Assembly: GCA_016932965.1 (NCBI GenBank)
Contig: JAFGBW010000143.1
Location: 1 to 15,706, forward strand
Direction: 5' to 3'
Source of the DNA: Candidatus Auribacterota bacterium
GTDB taxonomy: Bacteria > Auribacterota > JAFGBW01
DNA: 15,706 nt
Each line of letters opens with the position of its first letter. Position 1 is the stretch's first letter. Shown one piece after another: positions 2,701-12,059 of this stretch. The position numbers and the translations under genes were made by a program. The notes under the pieces were generated by a model, which was given only the letters and a program-made list of their open reading frames with translations, had not been told where the DNA came from and made no database searches.

Positions 2701-3039
2701 TTGAAAAACAACCGAAAAATTGAACGAATCCACCTCGTGGATTATCTTCATGTGTTGGACAGCAGCAATGACCGTCTTGTCGGCTATCTTCTTGATATTC
2801 ATTTACATGGATTGATGCTTGCTGGATTGGAGCCCATCAAAGCAGACTCCCTGTTTCACTTGAAAGTGATGCTGCCGGAAGACATCCAGGGGAAAAGTCA
2901 TTTTCCAATTGAGGCGTCCTGCCGATGGTGTAAAAAAAACTCTAAAGAGGACTGGTATGACATCGGATTTAAAATCATCCAGATAGCAAGGGAGGATATA
3001 GAAATTGTCCGTACCTTCCTGCCCGACTCTTATTTTTAA
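2701..3039 (+). CDS. Small PilZ-domain-like protein
   Basis: The 112-residue product has the layout of a stand-alone PilZ domain. An N-terminal R5-x-x-x-R9 motif (RKIER) is followed by a beta-strand and D32-I-H-L-H-G37, matching the canonical D/NxSxxG motif except that the Ser is His. Further strands follow: SLFHLKVMLPED, EASCRWCKK and WYDIGFKII. PilZ domains bind cyclic di-GMP and control motility, polysaccharide export and pili. The Ser-to-His change could weaken or alter binding. The start is TTG at 2701, supported by AAGGAG at 2687-2692 with normal spacing and by the RxxxR motif directly after it. The gene follows the coiled-coil gene by 26 nt and precedes the Tad operon, which makes a regulatory link plausible. 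Confidence 0.7.
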   Translation: MKNNRKIERIHLVDYLHVLDSSNDRLVGYLLDIHLHGLMLAGLEPIKADSLFHLKVMLPEDIQGKSHFPIEASCRWCKKNSKEDWYDIGFKIIQIAREDIEIVRTFLPDSYF

Positions 3040-3070: not shown

Positions 3071-3099
3071 TTGCCGATTTCTTCATAAAAAGGTATGAT
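3071..3099 (+). promoter_or_regulatory. Predicted promoter of the FHA-Tad operon
   Basis: TTGCCG (3071-3076) and TATGAT (3094-3099) are separated by exactly 17 nt, in the 110-nt gap between the PilZ-like gene and cpaB. The -10 box differs from consensus at one position. Transcription would begin near 3106, leaving a leader of about 44 nt with AGGAG at 3136-3140, 9 nt before the cpaB start. Confidence 0.6.
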
Positions 3100-3149
3100 C
3101 GACCTCAATTCTTAATCTTAATAAGCATTATATCCAGGAGTTTGAAACT

Positions 3150-4001
3150 ATGAAAAAAATATTGCCGTTGATTGTAGCCGTAGTATTAGGCCTGGTGGCT
3201 GTGTTAGGCGTTCAAAATTATTTAAAGAAAAAAGATGAAGAATACAGGGAAAAAGTCCGGCCTAAACAGGTGATCGTGGCTCAGCGCAATATCAAATCCG
3301 GTGAACAGCTGACTCTGGATATTCTCGCCATACGGGAATTTCCTGAAGCCATGCTGCCGGAAAACGTCGTGACATCCCAGGACAAGGATTCCGTGCTGTA
3401 TCAGCCTGTTTCCCGTGATTTTTCACAAGGCGAACCTTTGCTCTGGACGTACCTTGGCACTCCCAAAGCGGCCAAAGCCATGTCGCAAGTCATTCGGGCT
3501 GATGAGCGCGCCATCACTATTTCCGTTGATAATGTGGCAGGAGTGGATGGATATATCCAGCCTAACGACCGGGTAGACATCTATGTCTCGATCAAAATTC
3601 CCGATACCAAAAAACAGCAGGTTCCCACCAAGGATAGCGAACAAGTCACAATGATTGATGTGGATACCCTCAAACCCGTGACCTTTATTCTGCTTCAAAA
3701 TGTCACGGTTCTGGCAACAGGATCCTCTTTTTTCCAGGAACAGGTTGCGACCGATCATGAATATCATTCCGTGACTCTCGCAGTGACGCCCATGGAAGCG
3801 GCATTAGTCAAATTCGCAAGTGAAAACGGCTCGCTCTGTCTTGCGTTGCGCAACAGTCAGGATTTCGGGGAAGCATCCAAAGTCGAAATCATCGAAATGA
3901 ATACCATTTTGGACTTGGCCAAACTTCGCGAACTACAGGAAGACCGTAAAAAAAGAGTCGAAGTCTATCGTCAGGGAAAAATGCAGGTCGTGGAACGTTA
4001 A
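3150..4001 (+). CDS. cpaB: Flp pilus assembly protein CpaB/RcpC
   Basis: The 283-residue product has the CpaB architecture. A single N-terminal membrane anchor (residues 4-21) is followed by a SAF domain (about 38-101, with VIVAQRNIKSGEQLTLDIL and REFPEAMLPENVV) and a CpaB/RcpC domain (about 112-238, with ITISVDNVAGVDGYIQPNDRVDIYV). CpaB is a periplasmic, membrane-anchored part of Tad/Flp machines that is thought to work with the secretin. The length is near the family norm. ATG 3150 has a good AGGAG 9 nt upstream. It is the first gene of the operon and lies 15 nt before the secretin gene, with the GA-rich ribosome site of the latter in between. Confidence 0.92.
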   Translation: MKKILPLIVAVVLGLVAVLGVQNYLKKKDEEYREKVRPKQVIVAQRNIKSGEQLTLDILAIREFPEAMLPENVVTSQDKDSVLYQPVSRDFSQGEPLLWTYLGTPKAAKAMSQVIRADERAITISVDNVAGVDGYIQPNDRVDIYVSIKIPDTKKQQVPTKDSEQVTMIDVDTLKPVTFILLQNVTVLATGSSFFQEQVATDHEYHSVTLAVTPMEAALVKFASENGSLCLALRNSQDFGEASKVEIIEMNTILDLAKLRELQEDRKKRVEVYRQGKMQVVER

Positions 4002-4016
4002 GGAGAAGAGGAGAAA

Positions 4017-5219
4017 ATGAAAAAATTTTTTCTATTGCTTCTGGCCGGATGGATATCAGCATCTTTTCCGGTTTTTGGCGGTAATGTAAAAAAAGAAAAT
4101 GTCTCATTGGGTTCAAACGAAGAAAAAATCATCACCATAACGAATCTAAAAGGGATCTCCAATGCCGGAGACATCGTTGAAACCGTACTGTTAAAAGACG
4201 GGGATTCGGTCATGTTTCGAGGCATACACTGGGGAGATACCCAGGTGACGGCGTGGGATGAATCAGGAAATCAGTGGATTTATTATATTCACGTTGAGGT
4301 CCCGAAATTCATCAAGGAACTTCAGGGCTTTTTGGAGGACATCGAAGGGGTGAACGTCAATTTCCTTGGAAAGGATGCCGTTGTCGAAGGGCAATTGTTG
4401 CGAAAAAGCGACATCAACCGTTTGAATCAGATATTAGCGAATTATCCCCAGGTCAAAAATATGGTGAGCCTGAACGTTGTCAAGTCAGATGAACTGCTCC
4501 TGGATGCTGTCAAAGCCGAGATTTACGATCCCAATGTGAGATGCAATTTTTTAGGCAGCGGCCTGATGATGGAGGGGACGGTTTTGTCTCCCCAGCTCAA
4601 ATCAGCGAATGAATCAGCAGCTAAATTCTATTTTCCTTCCATTTATCCGGCTCTCAATATAGCGCTACCGGACTTTTCTTTTAGCCTGGAATGGATAGGA
4701 ATGAAAATTCCGGATAGCCAAACAACAGACTCCTCCTTTTCCGCCTTTATTCAGGGCGTGAAAAAACAAAACATGAAAAAATTGATCCCCTATACTTTTT
4801 TTACGGTAAAAAATCATGAACAGATGCTCACTCTGATTTCCGAATCCGGGCAATCCCGCATTCTATCTCAGTCAAAGTTGAATGTCCAAAGCGGGAATAA
4901 AAATGCCTGGGAAGAAAAAAATCCGAACGGCTTCAATTTTACGGCAGAACTTCAGCCTACTATCATGGATGACAATCGTGTGGATTGCCGGATAACTCTG
5001 ACGCTTACCAGCGCCGGAACCAATCTGGTCTGGCAGACATGCCGTCTGGTGTTCAACAAGGGACAAAGCATTGCTATTACCGGATTGCGGCAAATGCTGG
5101 AATCCTCCCTTGGGGATAAAAAAGAAATACTGAAAAATTCCGCTGTCCTTTCCGCCATTTCATCCTCAAATGAGGAAATCATCCTGATTTTAACCCCTGA
5201 ATGGAGCGCGAGACAATAA
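4017..5219 (+). CDS. cpaC: Divergent, shortened CpaC/RcpA-type secretin
   Basis: A signal peptide (about residues 1-21) is followed by a pilus-type N-terminal domain (about 30-95, ending in DTQVTAWDESGNQWIYYIHVEV) and a BON-like module (about 98-155). The C-terminal half retains parts of a secretin core: SRILSQSKLNVQSGNK (280-295), FTAELQPTIMDDNRVDCRITL (308-328) and KGQSIAITGL (348-357). It ends with EEIILILTPEW. The usual secretin signature between these last two blocks, with its VPxLGDIPxLGxLF pattern, is absent; a short segment around KNSAVLSAIS takes its place. At 400 residues it is shorter than typical CpaC. The family forms the outer-membrane channel of Tad machines. Whether this member still forms a gated pore is uncertain. 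The GGAG-rich site at about 4002-4013 supports ATG 4017. Confidence 0.8.
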   Translation: MKKFFLLLLAGWISASFPVFGGNVKKENVSLGSNEEKIITITNLKGISNAGDIVETVLLKDGDSVMFRGIHWGDTQVTAWDESGNQWIYYIHVEVPKFIKELQGFLEDIEGVNVNFLGKDAVVEGQLLRKSDINRLNQILANYPQVKNMVSLNVVKSDELLLDAVKAEIYDPNVRCNFLGSGLMMEGTVLSPQLKSANESAAKFYFPSIYPALNIALPDFSFSLEWIGMKIPDSQTTDSSFSAFIQGVKKQNMKKLIPYTFFTVKNHEQMLTLISESGQSRILSQSKLNVQSGNKNAWEEKNPNGFNFTAELQPTIMDDNRVDCRITLTLTSAGTNLVWQTCRLVFNKGQSIAITGLRQMLESSLGDKKEILKNSAVLSAISSSNEEIILILTPEWSARQ

Positions 5220-5221
5220 CG

Positions 5222-6871
5222 ATGCCTGGTCCTTTTTATCTCATTCCCTTAAATGATCCTGAAGGCAGAGGCATGGCACCTATCCTGGTGGAAAAGGAAA
5301 TCATAGCAGGAAGAGACGAAAAAAATTTTCTGGTTCTTCATGATTCCAATGTTTCCAGAAAACATGTGCGTTTTGAAGCCACAAATGACGGACTGTTGAT
5401 TGAAGATTTGAAAAGCGCGAACGGAACTTTCATCAATAACAACCGCATTCAAAAAAAATTAGCCAATCCGGGTGACGTCATCGAGATCGGGCCATACCGG
5501 TTCAGAATGCAGCAGGACATTTCTCCCGTAGAAAACGCCAAACCGTCGAAGCCGGAAATGGTGGCGACCCGCGCATTGGAGCTCTCGGACAGAGTTGTTC
5601 TATTTAAAACACGGATTCATGAAGAACTGCTCGGCCGGATGGATTTAAAACGCCTTGAATTCGGCGATGATTCAAGCGAACTCCGGAAAAAAACCGAGGA
5701 AGCTGTCCGGCTTTTGCTGGCGGAAAAATCCGATGAACTCCGCGGCGAAGTAAACCCGGATCAGCTCTTACAGGAAATCATAGACGAGGCATTGGGATTG
5801 GGTCCGTTGGAAGATCTGCTGGCTGACCCGTCAGTCTCGGAAATCATGGTCAATCATAAGGATCAGATATACGTCGAGCAAAACGGAAAGCTGACCTTGA
5901 GTCCTAAACGGTTTATCAGCGAGGTACAAGTCCGCTCCGTCATTGAAAGAATCGTGGCCCCTTTGGGAAGAAGGATAGATGAAAGCTCTCCTTTAGTGGA
6001 CGCACGGTTGAAAGACGGAAGCCGTGTGAATGCCATCATTCCTCCGCTGGCCCTGAAAGGATCATCCATTACCATTCGTAAATTTTCAAAAAAACCCTTT
6101 GTGATTGATGATCTGATTCGTTTTGGAAGCATGAACCGTCACATTGCCGAATTTTTAAAACTGGCTGTGGAATACAGGAAAAACATCGTGATTTCAGGCG
6201 GAACCGGTTCCGGAAAAACAACGCTTTTAAATGTGGTGTCAGGTTTCATCCCGTCTGATGAAAGAATCGTCACCGTTGAAGATGCGGCGGAATTAAAACT
6301 GCCGCAGGATCATGTGGTTTCCTTGGAAAGCAGGCCGCCCAATATCGAGGGCAAAGGAGCGATCACCATTCGCGACCTCGTGAAAAATTGTCTCCGCATG
6401 CGTCCTGACCGTATTGTGGTCGGAGAATGCCGTGGCGCAGAAGCCCTGGACATGCTCCAGGCCATGAACACTGGTCATGACGGATCCCTGACCACCGGTC
6501 ACGCCAACACGCCGCGGGACATGCTGGCAAGATTGGAAACTATGGTGCTCATGGCAGGAATGGATTTACCCTCCCGAGCCATCCGTGAACAAATCGCGTC
6601 TGCTATCGCTATTATCGTTCAACAGTCCAGACTTGCTGACGGCAGCCGCAAAATTACTCATGTGACTGAAATCACGGGCATGGAAAACAATACTCTCACC
6701 ATGCAGGATATTTATCTATATAAACAAACCGGATTTAACGCACAGGGTAAAGTTGAAGGGTATTTCACGGCCACCGGCTGTGTTCCAAAATTCGTTGAAG
6801 AATTAAAATCCAGAGGGATTCCCGTTAATATGGATTTATTTGAAGAAAGCATTAATCCAAAACATTCATGA
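5222..6871 (+). CDS. cpaF: FHA-CpaF fusion: Tad secretion ATPase with N-terminal FHA domain
   Basis: The N-terminus (residues 1-100) is a FHA domain with its phosphothreonine-binding residues intact: G30-R31, S45-R46-K-H48 and N67-G68. The remainder is a CpaF/TadA-type ATPase. It has the CpaF N-terminal helical region (about 120-190), a [20 protein letters not shown] segment, Walker [10 protein letters not shown] (326-334), a Walker B region RIVVGECRG (397-405) and the [15 protein letters not shown] histidine region. CpaF hexamers power Tad pilus assembly or secretion at the inner membrane. I chose ATG 5222, which lies 2 nt past the secretin stop. ATG 5201 is possible (seven more residues, 19-nt overlap) but has no ribosome site, whereas GGAG/GAG sequences precede 5222. 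The FHA fusion suggests that ATPase docking or activity depends on protein phosphorylation. Confidence 0.93.
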
Positions 6872-6899
6872 ACCAGATTAAAGCATTAAGGGTTTAAAT

Positions 6900-7787
6900 A
6901 TGGCTCATTCTCAATACTTCATCATGTATCTGGTACTTTTTGCCACCCTGATTTCGGTGATCATCTTTATATACGGAGCATGGAAAATCATCCAGATGCC
7001 CTATGGGAAATATGAAGAGAGATATCTCCAGGTCGCCTCAGGAAAATTAAACCAAATGTTCGTATTTCTTCCTCCGGAAGCTGTCCTTTACCTGAAATTT
7101 TCCGCTCTGTTTTTCGGTTTCCTGATATTTTATTATATTTTTTCAGGGGTTCAGTTCAAAATCGTACAATATGTTGTGGCAATTACGGCCAGCATTTGCG
7201 GATTCTTTCTTCCGGAATGGATCATGAACATGATGCAGAATAAAAGGCTGAATAAATTCGAATTACAGCTAGTAGAGGGTTTAACCACTCTCTCAAACTC
7301 TTTGAAAGCGGGTTTCAGTTTTCCCCAAGCTCTGGATCTTCTGGTTAAAGAAGGTACTCCACCTATTTCCCAGGAATTCGGCCTGGTCCTGAAAGAAAAT
7401 AAACTGGGAGTATCTCTGGAAGATGCCCTTGTGAATCTCACACGCCGTGTTGCCAGTGAAGATCTGGACCTGGTTGTCACTTCCGTTGTTCTCACACGGG
7501 AATTGGGAGGCAATCTTTCGACTATTTTCGAAAGACTGGCACATACTATCCGTGAGCGGCTGAAATTAAAAGGGAAAATCCAGGCTTTGACTTCCCAGGG
7601 TATCATGCAGGGCTGGGTCGTGGGACTCATGCCGGTAGGCCTAGGGGTCATGATTTCCGTCATCAGCCCTGACATGATGGACGCCTTTCTGGCTTCTATA
7701 GTCGGATGGATTCTAATCGGTCTCATCATCATCCTGGAAGTAATAGGGGCTTTCGTTATAAAAAAAATCGTAACCATTGATATATAA
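6900..7787 (+). CDS. tadB: Tad inner-membrane platform protein TadB
   Basis: The 295-residue product is a GspF/T2SF-family platform protein. Hydrophobic segments lie at about 6-27, 62-82 and 87-105, then 236-256 and 264-288. The cytoplasmic T2SF domain (about 120-235) reads LVEGLTTLSNSLKAGFSFPQAL, then ALVNLTRRVASEDLDLVVTSV and RELGGNLSTIFERL, the usual TadB pattern. With TadC it forms the inner-membrane platform on which the CpaF ATPase acts. An AAGGG site at about 6888-6892 precedes ATG 6900. The gene lies 28 nt after cpaF, which fits the operon. Confidence 0.94.
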   Translation: MAHSQYFIMYLVLFATLISVIIFIYGAWKIIQMPYGKYEERYLQVASGKLNQMFVFLPPEAVLYLKFSALFFGFLIFYYIFSGVQFKIVQYVVAITASICGFFLPEWIMNMMQNKRLNKFELQLVEGLTTLSNSLKAGFSFPQALDLLVKEGTPPISQEFGLVLKENKLGVSLEDALVNLTRRVASEDLDLVVTSVVLTRELGGNLSTIFERLAHTIRERLKLKGKIQALTSQGIMQGWVVGLMPVGLGVMISVISPDMMDAFLASIVGWILIGLIIILEVIGAFVIKKIVTIDI

Positions 7788-7834
7788 TAGTGAATGTTAA
7801 ACAGTGAAATGAATAGCAGATAGACAAAATATAA

Positions 7835-8746
7835 ATGAAGAGTTTAATTTATCTTGAATCTTTTATCATTGGAATAGCCGTCGCCTGGATGTTCGTTCCT
7901 AAGGACATTGAAAAACTCCAGACCTTGTGGAAAGCACAAAGTGAAAAGAAAAAAGGCGTGCTGCTCTGGATCGCCCCTTTTTTATCAGAATGGGGAAAAG
8001 TAGTTGAAGGAATACGGTTTCCAGCCTTGCAGCGATTCATGCAAAAAATCGCCCGATCCCTTGTCATGGCAGGCGTGGAAGAAGCAATGACCCCGGCTGA
8101 ATTTGTGGCGCTGCAGGCCATGGTTCCGGCACTCATACTGGCGGTCATGCTGATCGGTTCTTTTCGCATAGAATTCCTGCATTTCATGCAAACTCCCGGA
8201 GGATTTATTCTAGGGTTGTTCTCCACCTGCCTCATTGGAAGTTATCTGCCGGTTGCTATCCTTCAGGATCAGGTCAGTAAACGTCAGAAATCCATCAGCA
8301 GGGAACTGCCGTTTGCTCTCGATATGCTTACATCCGCTGTGCAGGCCGGTCTCGATTTTGCCGGAGCCATCAGGCGTCTCATAAAAAAAACAAACAAAAC
8401 CAGTCCCTTGATGGATGAATTTACCCTGATGCTGAAAGAAATCAATCTGGGAAAAACCAGAACTGAGGCCTTAAAAAGAATGGCTGAACGGGTAGGTTTG
8501 GCTGAACTCAATTCCGTCGTTTCCGCTTTGGTTCAGGCTGACCAGCTCGGAACAGGTTTGGGAACCACCCTCACCAATCTCTCAGATGATTTAAGGGTTA
8601 AACGCTTTCAAAAAGCCGAAAAAATGGCTTTAGAAGCGCCGGTAAAAATGCTTTTCCCGCTGATTTTTTTTATTTTCCCTTCCGTATTCATCATTTTAAT
8701 CGGTCCCCTTATTTTACAAATGGGGCAGGAATTGGCGAAGAGATAA
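7835..8746 (+). CDS. tadC: Tad inner-membrane platform protein TadC
   Basis: The 303-residue product is the second T2SF-family platform protein. Predicted membrane segments lie at about 4-21, 90-110, 122-143 and 272-294. The T2SF domain is at about 155-265, with ELPFALDMLTSAVQAGLDF, LMLKEINLGKTRTEALKRMA and ALVQADQLGTGLGTTL. The partner is TadB and the energy source is the CpaF fusion. The 47-nt gap after tadB holds no recognisable strong ribosome site, so translation may be modest or coupled in another way. The stop at 8744-8746 is followed after one base by the next start codon, which suggests translational coupling with the FHA protein gene. Confidence 0.93.
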   Translation: MKSLIYLESFIIGIAVAWMFVPKDIEKLQTLWKAQSEKKKGVLLWIAPFLSEWGKVVEGIRFPALQRFMQKIARSLVMAGVEEAMTPAEFVALQAMVPALILAVMLIGSFRIEFLHFMQTPGGFILGLFSTCLIGSYLPVAILQDQVSKRQKSISRELPFALDMLTSAVQAGLDFAGAIRRLIKKTNKTSPLMDEFTLMLKEINLGKTRTEALKRMAERVGLAELNSVVSALVQADQLGTGLGTTLTNLSDDLRVKRFQKAEKMALEAPVKMLFPLIFFIFPSVFIILIGPLILQMGQELAKR

Positions 8747-8747
8747 T

Positions 8748-10235
8748 ATGGGCGATATCAAATTACAGGTATACAAGTCCTCCAGCTTAAAAGCCGGCCA
8801 GCAATTCATTCTGAATCAGGGTGAGACCGTGATCGGACGGAAAGCGGAAGATGCTCAGATCGTGGTGCCGGAACCGTTGGTCTCAAGAAAACACTGCGTA
8901 TTTCATGTTGAAGGCGACGCCGTTTCTATCGATGATTTAAAAAGCGGCAACGGAACTTTTTTTAACGGCAAAAAGATACAAAATAAGACCCAATTAAAAG
9001 GAGGCGATAAAATCCAGGTTGGAGACACCTATTTTGAAATTCTCCACCCCTCTCAGGCTGAAAAAAAAACGTCCCCTCCTCCTCGAATTGAAAAAAAACC
9101 CGAAGCGCCAAAAAAGCCCGTTTCCGAACCAATAAAACTTCCACCTCCTTCCAGCCGTCCTCAGGACAAAATCAAGGAAGACATAAATAAAATCAGACTT
9201 AAAAAAATAACGACTCTGGCCATGGCGCTCCTTTTTGTCCTTGGCATCGGAGCCTTGTTTTTTCTGGGCAAATCTGGGCTTTCTCAACGAAACGAGTTGA
9301 AGCTCCTTACAACAAAAGATGTGAATACGACTTACTCCTGGGTGGACGGAGGCTGTAAATTCCGTCATCCTGAAACCTGGCAGCGCCTGCAGATGTATAC
9401 AGAACCCGTTTTTGCTTATTCGTATTTTGACCATTCTGTCTTATTTTTCGGATTCAGCTATAACGGAGAGGATGTGATTTTTGCCGTTGACCTGTTGAAA
9501 GGCATGCCGGCTACGCTTTCCGTGGAGGGAATAGCCAAATCCTCTTCTGACGTATTCCCCAGGGTCATGGCTTACGGACTGGATTTTTTGCATTGGAAAA
9601 AATCTACGCTTTCAGGAAGAGAGGCCATTTTTACCGAGACCCCGGTTTTTGAAAGAGGGGGGAAACCATTAAAAGCGCTTGAAGCCTATATATTGGACCA
9701 GGGACGCCGGTATCTGGTGATCGCCTTCACAAGCGAATCCCTTTTCCCGCAGTTTAGCCCTATTTTTCAGGAAATGATGGCCAGTTTTGAAATCGATCCT
9801 TATACGGAAGAATTTCCCCATCCCGCCTCCCCAAGGGATGATGTCCGGCTTTTGGTGAAATCTTCCAATGCATTGGTGGAAAAGCAGGACGTGAAATCCG
9901 AAAATCTTTATCTGGCTCTGAAAGACTACCGCAAAGCTGCCATCTTATGGAACCGCTATGCTTTTGATCCCAACGACCCCTTGCAGAAGGAATTGCTCAC
10001 CAACTTTCAAAAAGCGCAGACACTTCTGGATAACCGTTATAAGAATCTGAAATTTAAAATCGAACGCGGATTGAGAATAGGAGATGATGAATCCATTTAC
10101 CGGGCTGTAAAGGAAATCATGGCCATGATTCCTAATCCGGAAGATGAGCGCTATAAATACGCTATTTCCTATTGTACTCCTGAATTAAAAGAAAAATTTG
10201 AAAATATGCAGAACAAGGAAAACTATTCCTATTAA
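8748..10235 (+). CDS. FHA domain membrane protein with DcrB/PsbP-like and helical periplasmic regions
   Basis: The 495-residue product has four parts. First is an intact FHA domain (1-100; G30-R31, S46-R47-K-H49, N68-G69). Next is a Pro/Lys-rich linker (about 109-140). A single membrane segment follows (about 154-174), and its preceding KIRLKK suggests a cytoplasmic N-terminus. The C-terminal part should then be periplasmic. Residues about 195-350 have a FRHPETWQR start and an ASFEI end, reminiscent of the DcrB/PsbP fold; I give this as a fold guess only. Residues about 362-495 look TPR-like helical. The gene starts one base after tadC. Its FHA resembles that of the CpaF fusion closely (VSRKH, DLKS-NGTF, IQ-K), so the two may be paralogous domains. 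I infer that it couples phosphorylation in the cytoplasm to the Tad machine. Confidence 0.85.
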   Translation: MGDIKLQVYKSSSLKAGQQFILNQGETVIGRKAEDAQIVVPEPLVSRKHCVFHVEGDAVSIDDLKSGNGTFFNGKKIQNKTQLKGGDKIQVGDTYFEILHPSQAEKKTSPPPRIEKKPEAPKKPVSEPIKLPPPSSRPQDKIKEDINKIRLKKITTLAMALLFVLGIGALFFLGKSGLSQRNELKLLTTKDVNTTYSWVDGGCKFRHPETWQRLQMYTEPVFAYSYFDHSVLFFGFSYNGEDVIFAVDLLKGMPATLSVEGIAKSSSDVFPRVMAYGLDFLHWKKSTLSGREAIFTETPVFERGGKPLKALEAYILDQGRRYLVIAFTSESLFPQFSPIFQEMMASFEIDPYTEEFPHPASPRDDVRLLVKSSNALVEKQDVKSENLYLALKDYRKAAILWNRYAFDPNDPLQKELLTNFQKAQTLLDNRYKNLKFKIERGLRIGDDESIYRAVKEIMAMIPNPEDERYKYAISYCTPELKEKFENMQNKENYSY

Positions 10236-10253
10236 ATAGTTTCCTTGCTATTT
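10214..10253 (+). promoter_or_regulatory. Stem-loop overlapping the stop codon between the two FHA genes
   Basis: CAAGGAAAACTATT (10214-10227) pairs with AATAGTTTCCTTG (10235-10247), with one bulged A and a 7-nt loop, across the stop codon of the upstream gene. Part of the right arm can alternatively pair AAATAG (10234-10239) with CTATTT (10248-10253). No T-run follows, so it is not an ordinary terminator. It may tune expression or RNA stability between the two genes. Confidence 0.45.
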
Positions 10254-10280
10254 AAAATCAAACCGCATGTGAGGTGAACC

Positions 10281-11993
10281 ATGGCTGAAGATATAAATGA
10301 GAAAAAAAATTCTGAAGATTTTGAGGAAAAAACCAATAAACTGCCTCCGTTGAATGCGGATGCCGATGACGGGAGCGCAACCGTCATCCGGGATGCGAAT
10401 GAAACGGTTATGGGCAGCTCTCCGGACATGGAAATGCTGGTTTTAGGAGCCAGGTTTGTGGTGATTTCCGGCCAGGACACTGGAAAAGAATTTTTAATAA
10501 CCAACAAAGACATGATCGCGGGAAGAGGGGACGATTGTGATTTCAGGTTGGATTATAAGGGAGTTTCCAGGCGCCATTTTAAAATCAGCTATGCCAATGG
10601 CAAAGTGATGCTTGAAGACCTGGAAAGTAAATTCGGAACCATACTCAAAGGAAATAAAATCGGGGGTCCTGTCGCCTTGTGTTCAGGTGATATGATCCAG
10701 CTGGGAGAATTGACGCTGAAATTCATTATAGGTGAGGAAAAGAAAGCAGGAAAACCAGGCGCTAAACTGATGCTGGTTGCCTTCATTGCCGTATTCATCA
10801 TCGGTGGAGCAGGCATGTTGAAACTCATGCTGGGATCCAAACAACCTGCGGAACCCCAGCCACCCGCCGCGGTTTCCGATTCTTCTCAAGCCTCTTCAAT
10901 AAGCGGCGTATCCTCTACTGCAAGCCCGTCTGAAATAGAAAATAAAATCCATGAAGCGCAAACTTTTGCCCAGAACAATGATTATGGAAGCGCTCTGGCC
11001 ATCATTGATAAAGTGGTGGCCATGAATCCGACCCATTCAGAAGCTTTAGCCCTTCAAAAAATGTGGCGGGAAAACCTCTCTCTCACCGCTAAACTGGATC
11101 AGGCACGCCGCCTTTTTGAAGCAGGGTCCCTTGAACAGGCGCAAATCTTAACCAAACAAATTCTGGATGCTTCCCCTCAGGAGCAGGAAGCAATCGATCT
11201 GGCTGATAAAATCAAGAAAGCAAAGGAAAGTCAAAGTGTCAAGGGTGTGCTTGAAGACGCGAGAAAACTCTCCAATGAAGGAAGATTTGACGCAGCCAAA
11301 AATCTTTTACAGACCATAAAAGATGCGGCATGGAAACCTCAGGTAGATGATTTAATGAACGAAATAGATACTAAAATACAAATAGAAGTGATTTATAAAG
11401 ATGCAAAAGCTCTTTTTAATTCAGGGGATCTAAAGGGCTCACTTGAAAAAGTGCGGGAAGGGCTTAGGCAGGCCAGTCAACACAACGAGTTAAAGCAGCT
11501 TGAAGTAAAAATCGAAATGGTTCAGAAACTTCAGGAAGAAGCAGAAAAAAATCTGAACAGTCCCATGCCCTTGTCGGCACGCGAACCGCTTCAAAAAATG
11601 ATCCATGAATGCGGGGATGCCAATCCGTTATCAGCCAAAGCAAAAGACAGCCTGGCGCAATTGAATGCCAAATCCTCCATTTTGGCCCATATCGCCTATC
11701 AGGAAGCGTTAGCCCAGGCGGCGGACGGCAATTTCCCGGAGGCCATTGGACAACTGAATCAATTGGTCAAAGATTTTCCCCAGGAAACTTATTTCAGGGA
11801 GAGCCGTGACGATCTGGCGTTGCGGCTGGATAATCTGGGCAAATCCCTTTTCAGAGCCGGATACGTTTTGGAGGACCAAGAACCCCTGAAGGCAAAAGAG
11901 ATCTGGCTGAGGCTCCTCAATTTTCTTCCCAAAGAACACATCTACGCCCAGAAAATCAAATCCAAAATGAGAAATCTGGGGCTGTCAAGGTAA
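10281..11993 (+). CDS. FHA domain membrane protein with periplasmic TPR repeats
   Basis: The 570-residue product begins with an acidic, Asn-rich tail (1-50) containing two similar Thr sites, ATVIR (T34) and ETVMG (T42). A FHA domain follows (about 58-150), with G81-R82 and S96-R-R-H99 kept, but the usual NG is FG at 118-119. A membrane segment is at about 161-184, then a Pro/Ser-rich linker (about 187-217). Residues about 219-560 are repeated helices of TPR type, for example HEAQTFAQNNDYGSALAIID, ARRLFEAGSLEQAQILTKQI and ARKLSNEGRFDAAKNLLQTI. The TPRs are predicted periplasmic and may take the place of a TadD-like assembly protein, which is inference. GAGGTG at 10271-10276 supports ATG 10281. 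It is the last gene of the operon, just before the terminator. Confidence 0.87.
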   Translation: MAEDINEKKNSEDFEEKTNKLPPLNADADDGSATVIRDANETVMGSSPDMEMLVLGARFVVISGQDTGKEFLITNKDMIAGRGDDCDFRLDYKGVSRRHFKISYANGKVMLEDLESKFGTILKGNKIGGPVALCSGDMIQLGELTLKFIIGEEKKAGKPGAKLMLVAFIAVFIIGGAGMLKLMLGSKQPAEPQPPAAVSDSSQASSISGVSSTASPSEIENKIHEAQTFAQNNDYGSALAIIDKVVAMNPTHSEALALQKMWRENLSLTAKLDQARRLFEAGSLEQAQILTKQILDASPQEQEAIDLADKIKKAKESQSVKGVLEDARKLSNEGRFDAAKNLLQTIKDAAWKPQVDDLMNEIDTKIQIEVIYKDAKALFNSGDLKGSLEKVREGLRQASQHNELKQLEVKIEMVQKLQEEAEKNLNSPMPLSAREPLQKMIHECGDANPLSAKAKDSLAQLNAKSSILAHIAYQEALAQAADGNFPEAIGQLNQLVKDFPQETYFRESRDDLALRLDNLGKSLFRAGYVLEDQEPLKAKEIWLRLLNFLPKEHIYAQKIKSKMRNLGLSR

Positions 11994-11996
11994 GAT

Positions 11997-12013
11997 TATT
12001 AAACGTTAAGAAT
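11997..12013 (+). repeat. Upstream copy of the TATTAAACGTT repeat
   Basis: TATTAAACGTT (11997-12007) is identical to 12103-12113, and the following six bases match at four positions. This copy lies just after the FHA-TPR stop codon. It may be a second binding site for the GbsR-like regulator encoded downstream. Confidence 0.4.
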
Positions 12014-12017
12014 TGAA

Positions 12018-12059
12018 AAAAACCCGGCATTTGGCTTGTACCAAACGCCGGGTTTTTTT
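12018..12059 (+). terminator. Strong intrinsic terminator of the FHA-Tad operon
   Basis: AACCCGGCATTTGG pairs with CCAAACGCCGGGTT across a CTTGTA loop, with one A-C mismatch, and is followed by a run of T residues (to 12059). An A-run precedes the stem, so it could also act on the other strand. It closes the operon that begins at 3071. Confidence 0.92.

What the first reader, a model, noticed from the sequence alone, without database searches (positions are those of the whole stretch)
3071..12059. A closed FHA-rich Tad-like operon with no pilin or locator gene
The sequence shows a promoter, seven same-strand genes and a strong terminator. The genes give CpaB, a secretin-like protein, a FHA-CpaF fusion, TadB, TadC and two FHA membrane proteins. 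Pilin, prepilin peptidase, TadE/F/G, TadD and CpaE/TadZ are absent from the operon. Standard Tad loci normally carry several of these. I infer a variant Tad machine in which FHA domains replace CpaE-type positioning, possibly for secretion or an atypical filament. Missing parts could be encoded elsewhere.
Basis: partly seen in the sequence, partly recalled or inferred. Interest (0 to 1): 0.8.

Follow-up and report, generated by a model that had tools for sequence, protein, structure and literature searches.

The report
Split Tad pilus locus lacking CpaE
This is half of a real bacterial Tad (tight adherence) pilus machine whose pilin genes lie elsewhere in the same genome, and it belongs to a widespread branch of Tad machines that carry a phosphothreonine-reading FHA domain on the motor where other Tad machines have the positioning protein CpaE.

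Summary
The seven-gene operon is real (3150-11993, terminator 12016-12059); the promoter match is at chance level. It is not pilin-less: the same genome (contig C291) carries tadG, tadE, two Flp-like pilins and cpaA, plus a tandem tadE paralogue on C262. A relative of the same order (G001) has flp-flp-cpaA directly upstream of the same seven genes. So this is the motor half of a split Tad (type IVc) pilus locus, not a pilin-free secretion machine. The CpaE absence does hold: the genome and two order-mates have only MinD/FlhG-type ParA ATPases. Across 115 CpaF motors, all 53 with an N-terminal FHA domain lack CpaE in the stretch examined. Of 62 without FHA, 56 have CpaE, fused to the same end of CpaF (21) or in a separate gene (35). 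Genomes with two Tad loci obey the rule locus by locus. The tree allows only 1-3 switches, so independent events are few. FHA-CpaF ("class III") and the FHA-rich Kil apparatus are published; I found no report of the FHA/CpaE exclusion, and a 2026 paper calls CpaE ubiquitous in Tad. Mechanism (inferred): phosphothreonine docking replaces CpaE. The Tad secretin here is strongly shortened.

The parts
3150..4001 (+). CpaB/RcpC: periplasmic alignment-ring protein of Tad
   Evidence: TIGR03177 5.1e-51 over cut-off; RcpC 8e-23
4017..5219 (+). CpaC/RcpA homologue: N-terminal VirB9-like sandwich, two BON-like domains, shortened secretin-like C-terminus lacking the GGExP hairpin
   Evidence: PF13629 weak, no PF00263 hit; alignment; AF2 model pLDDT 74, residues 217-400 secretin-like, Z 8-9
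5201..6871 (+). FHA-CpaF (TadA) motor ATPase, FHA at residues 24-106, ATPase 133-550
   Evidence: closest solved structure CpaF 1e-124; GR, SRxH and NGT motifs intact
6900..7787 (+). TadB inner-membrane platform
   Evidence: T2SSF 2.7e-19
7835..8746 (+). TadC inner-membrane platform
   Evidence: T2SSF 1.5e-15
8748..10235 (+). FHA1: cytoplasmic FHA, one TM (about 151-175), periplasmic C-terminus; FHA motifs intact
   Evidence: FHA 1.4e-18; TM; C-terminus orthologous to G001 FHA1, 3e-14
10281..11993 (+). FHA2: FHA, one TM (about 156-180), periplasmic TPR-like repeats; the NG of the NGT motif is FG here
   Evidence: FHA 2.5e-16, TPR; TM; C-terminus matches G001 FHA2 at 8e-10; motif
12016..12059 (+). 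intrinsic terminator closing the operon
2701..3039 (+). PilZ-domain gene 110 bp upstream of cpaB (possible c-di-GMP input; membership in the operon uncertain)
   Evidence: PilZ 1.4e-6, spacing

Best explanation
The operon encodes the envelope and motor half of one Tad (type IVc) pilus machine of the FHA-CpaF (class III) lineage. Its filament half (TadE, TadG, TadE, a 256-aa protein, two Flp-like pilins and the CpaA peptidase) is encoded at a second locus of the same genome. CpaE/TadZ is truly missing. Proposed mechanism (inferred): a Ser/Thr kinase phosphorylates a threonine on a machine or membrane partner, and the FHA domains of CpaF and FHA1 (FHA2 is doubtful, since its NG motif is FG) read that mark. 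The membrane-anchored FHA1 and FHA2 thus gather FHA-CpaF hexamers at TadB/TadC, doing the recruiting and positioning that the CpaE ring does elsewhere. CpaF then drives Flp extension through CpaB and a shortened CpaC. Shown: gene content, orthology, the split, CpaE absence and the FHA/CpaE exclusion. Inferred: docking, kinase control, filament formation.
For: Own genome: one CpaF-type ATPase; C291 holds tadG, tadE, Flp-like pilins and cpaA. G001 has flp2-flp-cpaA-cpaB-cpaC-FHAcpaF-tadB-tadC-DUF192-FHA1-FHA2-kinase contiguous. Lentisphaerota/Verrucomicrobiota loci put the pilin/cpaA/tadE genes in the same cluster. In G000-G002 no ParA-type hit exceeds 95 bits, against 170-617 for most CpaE; the G000 hits are 320- and 292-aa MinD/ParA proteins. 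Exclusion: 53 FHA-CpaF, none with CpaE; 56 of 62 FHA-less CpaF with CpaE. In two-Tad genomes every CpaE goes with an FHA-less CpaF. FHA1-FHA2 follow tadC in the window, G001, L020, L027 and six Lentisphaerota/Verrucomicrobiota-type loci. A kinase gene directly follows FHA2 in G001 and L020; G000 has 24 kinase-domain matches. CpaE rings CpaF in situ in Caulobacter (PMC13170226).
Against: No functional data. The window genome is a draft MAG (300 contigs, 92.6% complete), so the split and the absences depend on assembly. The FHA label needs as few as 1-3 changes on the CpaF tree, so the exclusion rests on few independent events. Pseudomonadota FHA-CpaF loci lack the extra FHA membrane proteins. 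FHA2 has FG instead of NG. The FHA pair also occurs beside CpaE-CpaF fusions in Bdellovibrionota, so it is not a strict CpaE substitute. L042 has neither CpaE nor FHA. The shortened CpaC may not form a normal pore.
Confidence: 0.7

Rival explanations
1. A variant Tad-derived secretion or contact machine without its own pilus filament, or a Kil-like contact apparatus.
For: No pilin in the operon; FHA-rich with FHA-CpaF like Myxococcus Kil, which acts in prey killing (PMC8460266); shortened secretin.
Against: Flp-like pilins, CpaA and TadE/G are in the same genome, and flp-flp-cpaA adjoin the orthologous operon in G001. Kil itself uses Flp-like pilins. Nothing here points to a secreted cargo.
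Confidence: 0.12
2. The FHA domains only tune an otherwise ordinary Tad machine (for example kinase-gated activation of the motor), and CpaE loss is an unrelated lineage accident rather than a replacement.
For: Few independent switches on the tree; FHA pair present also with CpaE-CpaF fusions; a Tad with neither module exists (L042).
Against: No locus in 115 carries both modules, both sit at the same N-terminal end of CpaF when fused, and two-Tad genomes keep the rule locus by locus.
Confidence: 0.3
3. The split is an assembly or binning artefact: C291 and C262 come from another organism, or join the window in the real genome.
For: Draft MAG with 300 contigs; C262 and C291 end in tandem tadE paralogues 80% identical, a typical break point.
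Against: In C291 cpaA is followed by opposite-strand unrelated genes, and cpaB in the window is preceded by other genes, so the two cannot adjoin at cpaA-cpaB as in G001. The C291 Flp-like pilins and CpaA resemble those of G001. Contamination is 2%.
Confidence: 0.08

Closest known systems
Tad / Flp / type IVc pilus (Caulobacter Cpa, Pseudomonas Rcp/Tad, Aggregatibacter Tad)
   Same: CpaB, CpaC-like, CpaF, TadB, TadC in order; Flp-like pilins, CpaA, TadE and TadG in the same genome
   Different: no CpaE/TadZ; FHA on the motor; two FHA membrane proteins; genes split in two loci; secretin shortened
Class III CpaF (FHA-IDR-CpaF), PMC12019362
   Same: identical domain order FHA-linker-CpaF
   Different: published as mostly betaproteobacterial, and the searched text does not mention CpaE; here in an uncultured lineage and tied to CpaE absence
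Kil contact-dependent killing apparatus of Myxococcus xanthus, PMC8460266
   Same: FHA-KilF ATPase, several FHA proteins, two gene clusters, short secretin, Flp-like pilins
   Different: TadG is present here; FHA genes are placed differently; the secretin is short at its C-terminal end; no evidence for predation
CpaE/TadZ-dependent Tad (PMC13170226)
   Same: same motor and platform
   Different: CpaE ring absent; that paper calls CpaE ubiquitous, which the FHA-CpaF lineage contradicts

Membership tests
Tad (type IVc) pilus system | CpaF-type ATPase with TadB and TadC platform pair | tested here: met
Tad (type IVc) pilus system | CpaB/RcpC | tested here: met
   TIGR03177 over cut-off
Tad (type IVc) pilus system | Flp pilin, CpaA peptidase, TadE/TadG minor pilins in the genome | tested here: met
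   C291, C262; Flp_Fap score below Pfam cut-off (18.6 vs 32.2 bits) but placed next to cpaA and matched to G001 flp by sequence and position
Tad (type IVc) pilus system | CpaC/RcpA secretin with a full secretin domain | tested here: inconclusive
   no PF00263 hit, two hairpins short, fold still secretin-like in a model built with secretin rows
Tad (type IVc) pilus system | CpaE/TadZ ParA-MinD protein (called ubiquitous in PMC13170226) | tested here: not met
   absent from locus and genome; absent from the whole FHA-CpaF branch examined, so not treated as defining
Class III CpaF | N-terminal FHA, linker, then CpaF ATPase | tested here: met
Kil apparatus | FHA-CpaF plus several FHA proteins, genes in two clusters | tested here: met
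   PMC8460266
Kil apparatus | TadG, RcpB and TadD missing | tested here: not met
   TadG-like protein on C291 (Pfam Tad 5.5e-6, over cut-off)
Kil apparatus | contact-dependent killing of prey | not testable with these tools
   needs culture

The most novel reading that the evidence does not exclude
A widespread ancient branch of Tad machines swapped the ParA/MinD-type positioning ATPase CpaE for phosphothreonine (FHA) docking on the motor, so pilus placement there follows Ser/Thr kinase signalling; in the window's order the Tad secretin has also been reduced to a shortened form.
Probability: 0.45. Interest if true: 0.75.

Novelty: new variant of a known kind. Interest (0 to 1): 0.52.

Why it matters
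CpaE/TadZ is described as a ubiquitous Tad part that surrounds the motor and localises the secretin (PMC13170226). If a whole branch spanning Pseudomonadota, Myxococcota, the Lentisphaerota/Verrucomicrobiota group and this lineage does without it and carries FHA on the same end of the motor, then how a Tad pilus is placed can be tested directly by swapping modules. It also gives a reason for the unexplained FHA abundance in the Kil killing apparatus.

Tried and rejected
Promoter scan: matches at chance level, not used. The CpaE model A1 includes a receiver domain and drew many response regulators; only hits over the ATPase half were read, and the best of these in G062 and G064 lie beside FlhF-like proteins (FlhG type). 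Genome-wide CpaE absence by score alone is weak for diverged gammaproteobacterial TadZ (L166, L167 score in the MinD range), so the locus test carries the weight. The plasmid search added one FHA-CpaF record, Moraxella bovis, obeying the rule. The FHA1 structure model was poor (pLDDT 57) and its periplasmic fold stays unknown. The CpaC fold match is not independent, because the alignment fed to the model held true secretins. The closeness of the window to the Kil motor was considered; the tree puts the window with its order-mates with modest support (85), in an unresolved part of the FHA branch. The organism's phylum could not be named.

Full report
What is there. The window is a whole contig (G000:C217) of a 3.14-Mb, 300-contig MAG, 92.6% complete. 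Seven tightly spaced genes run from 3150 to 11993: CpaB, a CpaC-like protein, FHA-CpaF, TadB, TadC and two FHA proteins each with one transmembrane segment. A strong intrinsic terminator follows at about 12016-12059. Flanking genes are a heptosyltransferase-like gene, a coiled-coil gene and a PilZ gene upstream, and an HTH regulator, an ABC-2 permease and a DUF4143 ATPase downstream.

The missing genes exist. The genome has a single CpaF-type ATPase. It has a second Peptidase_A24 of small CpaA size on contig C291, in a run tadE(cut)-tadG-tadE-256aa-flp2-flp-cpaA. A tadE on C262 is 80% identical to the start of C291 over the ends of both contigs, so the two contigs probably meet in a tandem tadE pair (inferred). 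The two pilin-like proteins carry a class III-type leader in front of a hydrophobic stretch; only one reaches even a weak Flp_Fap score, but both have counterparts in G001 (37.6% and 32.2% identity).

A relative links the halves. G001, in the same order, has flp2-flp-cpaA-cpaB-cpaC-FHAcpaF-tadB-tadC-DUF192-FHA1-FHA2 contiguous, then a Ser/Thr kinase; its TadE/TadG genes are elsewhere on contig C17. So G001 keeps the pilins with the motor, G000 keeps them with tadE/G, and in Lentisphaerota/Verrucomicrobiota loci (L033, L041, L043, L062, L071) one cluster holds FHA-CpaF, tadB, tadC, FHA1, FHA2, then cpaA and tadE, with flp and tadG where detected. The operon is therefore one half of an ordinary set of Tad parts. 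Orthology of FHA1 and FHA2 with G001 holds for their C-terminal parts alone (3e-14 and 8e-10).

CpaE. With profiles for FHA, CpaE and CpaF, each CpaF was classed by what lies at its N-terminus and beside it. After removing duplicates: 53 FHA-fused, 35 with a separate CpaE, 21 with CpaE fused to the N-terminus, 6 with neither. No FHA-CpaF had a CpaE in the stretch available, up to 10 kb each side (about 1.5 kb for loci from the whole-genome searches). Of the six with neither, four are second CpaF copies inside clusters of FHA-CpaF loci (L027, L046, L066, L067); the others are L042 and L165. Ten Tad loci with CpaE found in eight genomes that also own an FHA-CpaF locus were read: in nine the CpaE-linked CpaF has no FHA, and in one (L145) the CpaF is cut by the contig end. 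Twelve further FHA-CpaF and seven FHA-less CpaF from an even draw of the Massilia class were added, and none breaks the rule. In G000-G002 the best ParA-type hits are at MinD level, and those in G000 are short MinD/ParA proteins.

Limits of that result. On a tree of 115 CpaF cores the FHA label needs three changes at fewest, and well-supported branches force only one. The exclusion is thus strong as a description of lineages but rests on few independent switches.

The secretin. The CpaC homologue is the only clear Tad-type one found in each of the three genomes; it has no PF00263 match although each genome has five or six other secretins. Alignment shows the N-terminal sandwich and two BON-like domains, then a secretin-like C-terminus without the GGExP hairpin and a second loop. 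A model gives a secretin-like fold for 217-400 (Z 8-9 to InvG, PilQ, RcpA), but secretins were in its input. G001 and G002 are shorter still. Whether it makes a pore is open.

Mechanism. In Caulobacter, CpaE dimers ring CpaF and act in localisation (PMC13170226). In this lineage CpaF carries FHA with intact GR, SRxH and NGT motifs, two membrane proteins present FHA domains on the cytoplasmic side (topology inferred from the single TM), and kinase genes follow FHA2 in G001 and L020. The simplest reading is phosphothreonine docking that gathers and gates the motor. FHA-CpaF is published as class III (PMC12019362) and FHA abundance as a feature of Kil (PMC8460266). Paper searches found no statement of the FHA/CpaE exclusion; only an open-access library was searched.

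Verdict. The missing pilin is explained. The missing locator is real, and is a property of a whole branch of Tad machines.

Noticed in passing
window 2701-3039 and 1796-2674: A PilZ-domain gene and a coiled-coil gene sit directly upstream of cpaB on the same strand; a possible c-di-GMP input to the pilus.
   Followed up: no
L105:15473-15826, L106:505-837, L009:13300, L020:6188, L059:13024: A DUF192 gene recurs just after tadC in many Tad loci of different phyla, with and without FHA, but is absent from the window; role unknown.
   Followed up: partly
L105:19049 onward (L135:1049-2731), L020:9834: A Ser/Thr kinase gene directly follows FHA2 in two lineages, a candidate writer for the FHA readers.
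   Followed up: partly
L027:15198, L046:19090, L066:11111, L067:14178: Some Tad clusters, mostly Myxococcota, hold a second, diverged CpaF with neither FHA nor CpaE beside the FHA-CpaF.
   Followed up: no
L029, L030, L032, L037, L044, L047, L053, L061, L064, L072, L076, L080 and others: CpaE is fused to the N-terminus of CpaF in Bdellovibrionota, Omnitrophota, Elusimicrobiota and others, the same position that FHA takes.
   Followed up: partly
L042:8584-11272: A WOR-3 Tad locus whose CpaF has neither FHA nor CpaE.
   Followed up: no
L172 (NZ_CP087831.1 63900-85615): A Moraxella bovis plasmid carries an FHA-CpaF Tad locus without CpaE, ending in TadE and followed by an RHS-repeat gene.
   Followed up: no
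L104:4982-12847 (G000:C262): A giant ORF (over 2600 aa) that by eye combines repeats with AAA-like and von Willebrand-like parts lies on the contig with tadE.
   Followed up: no
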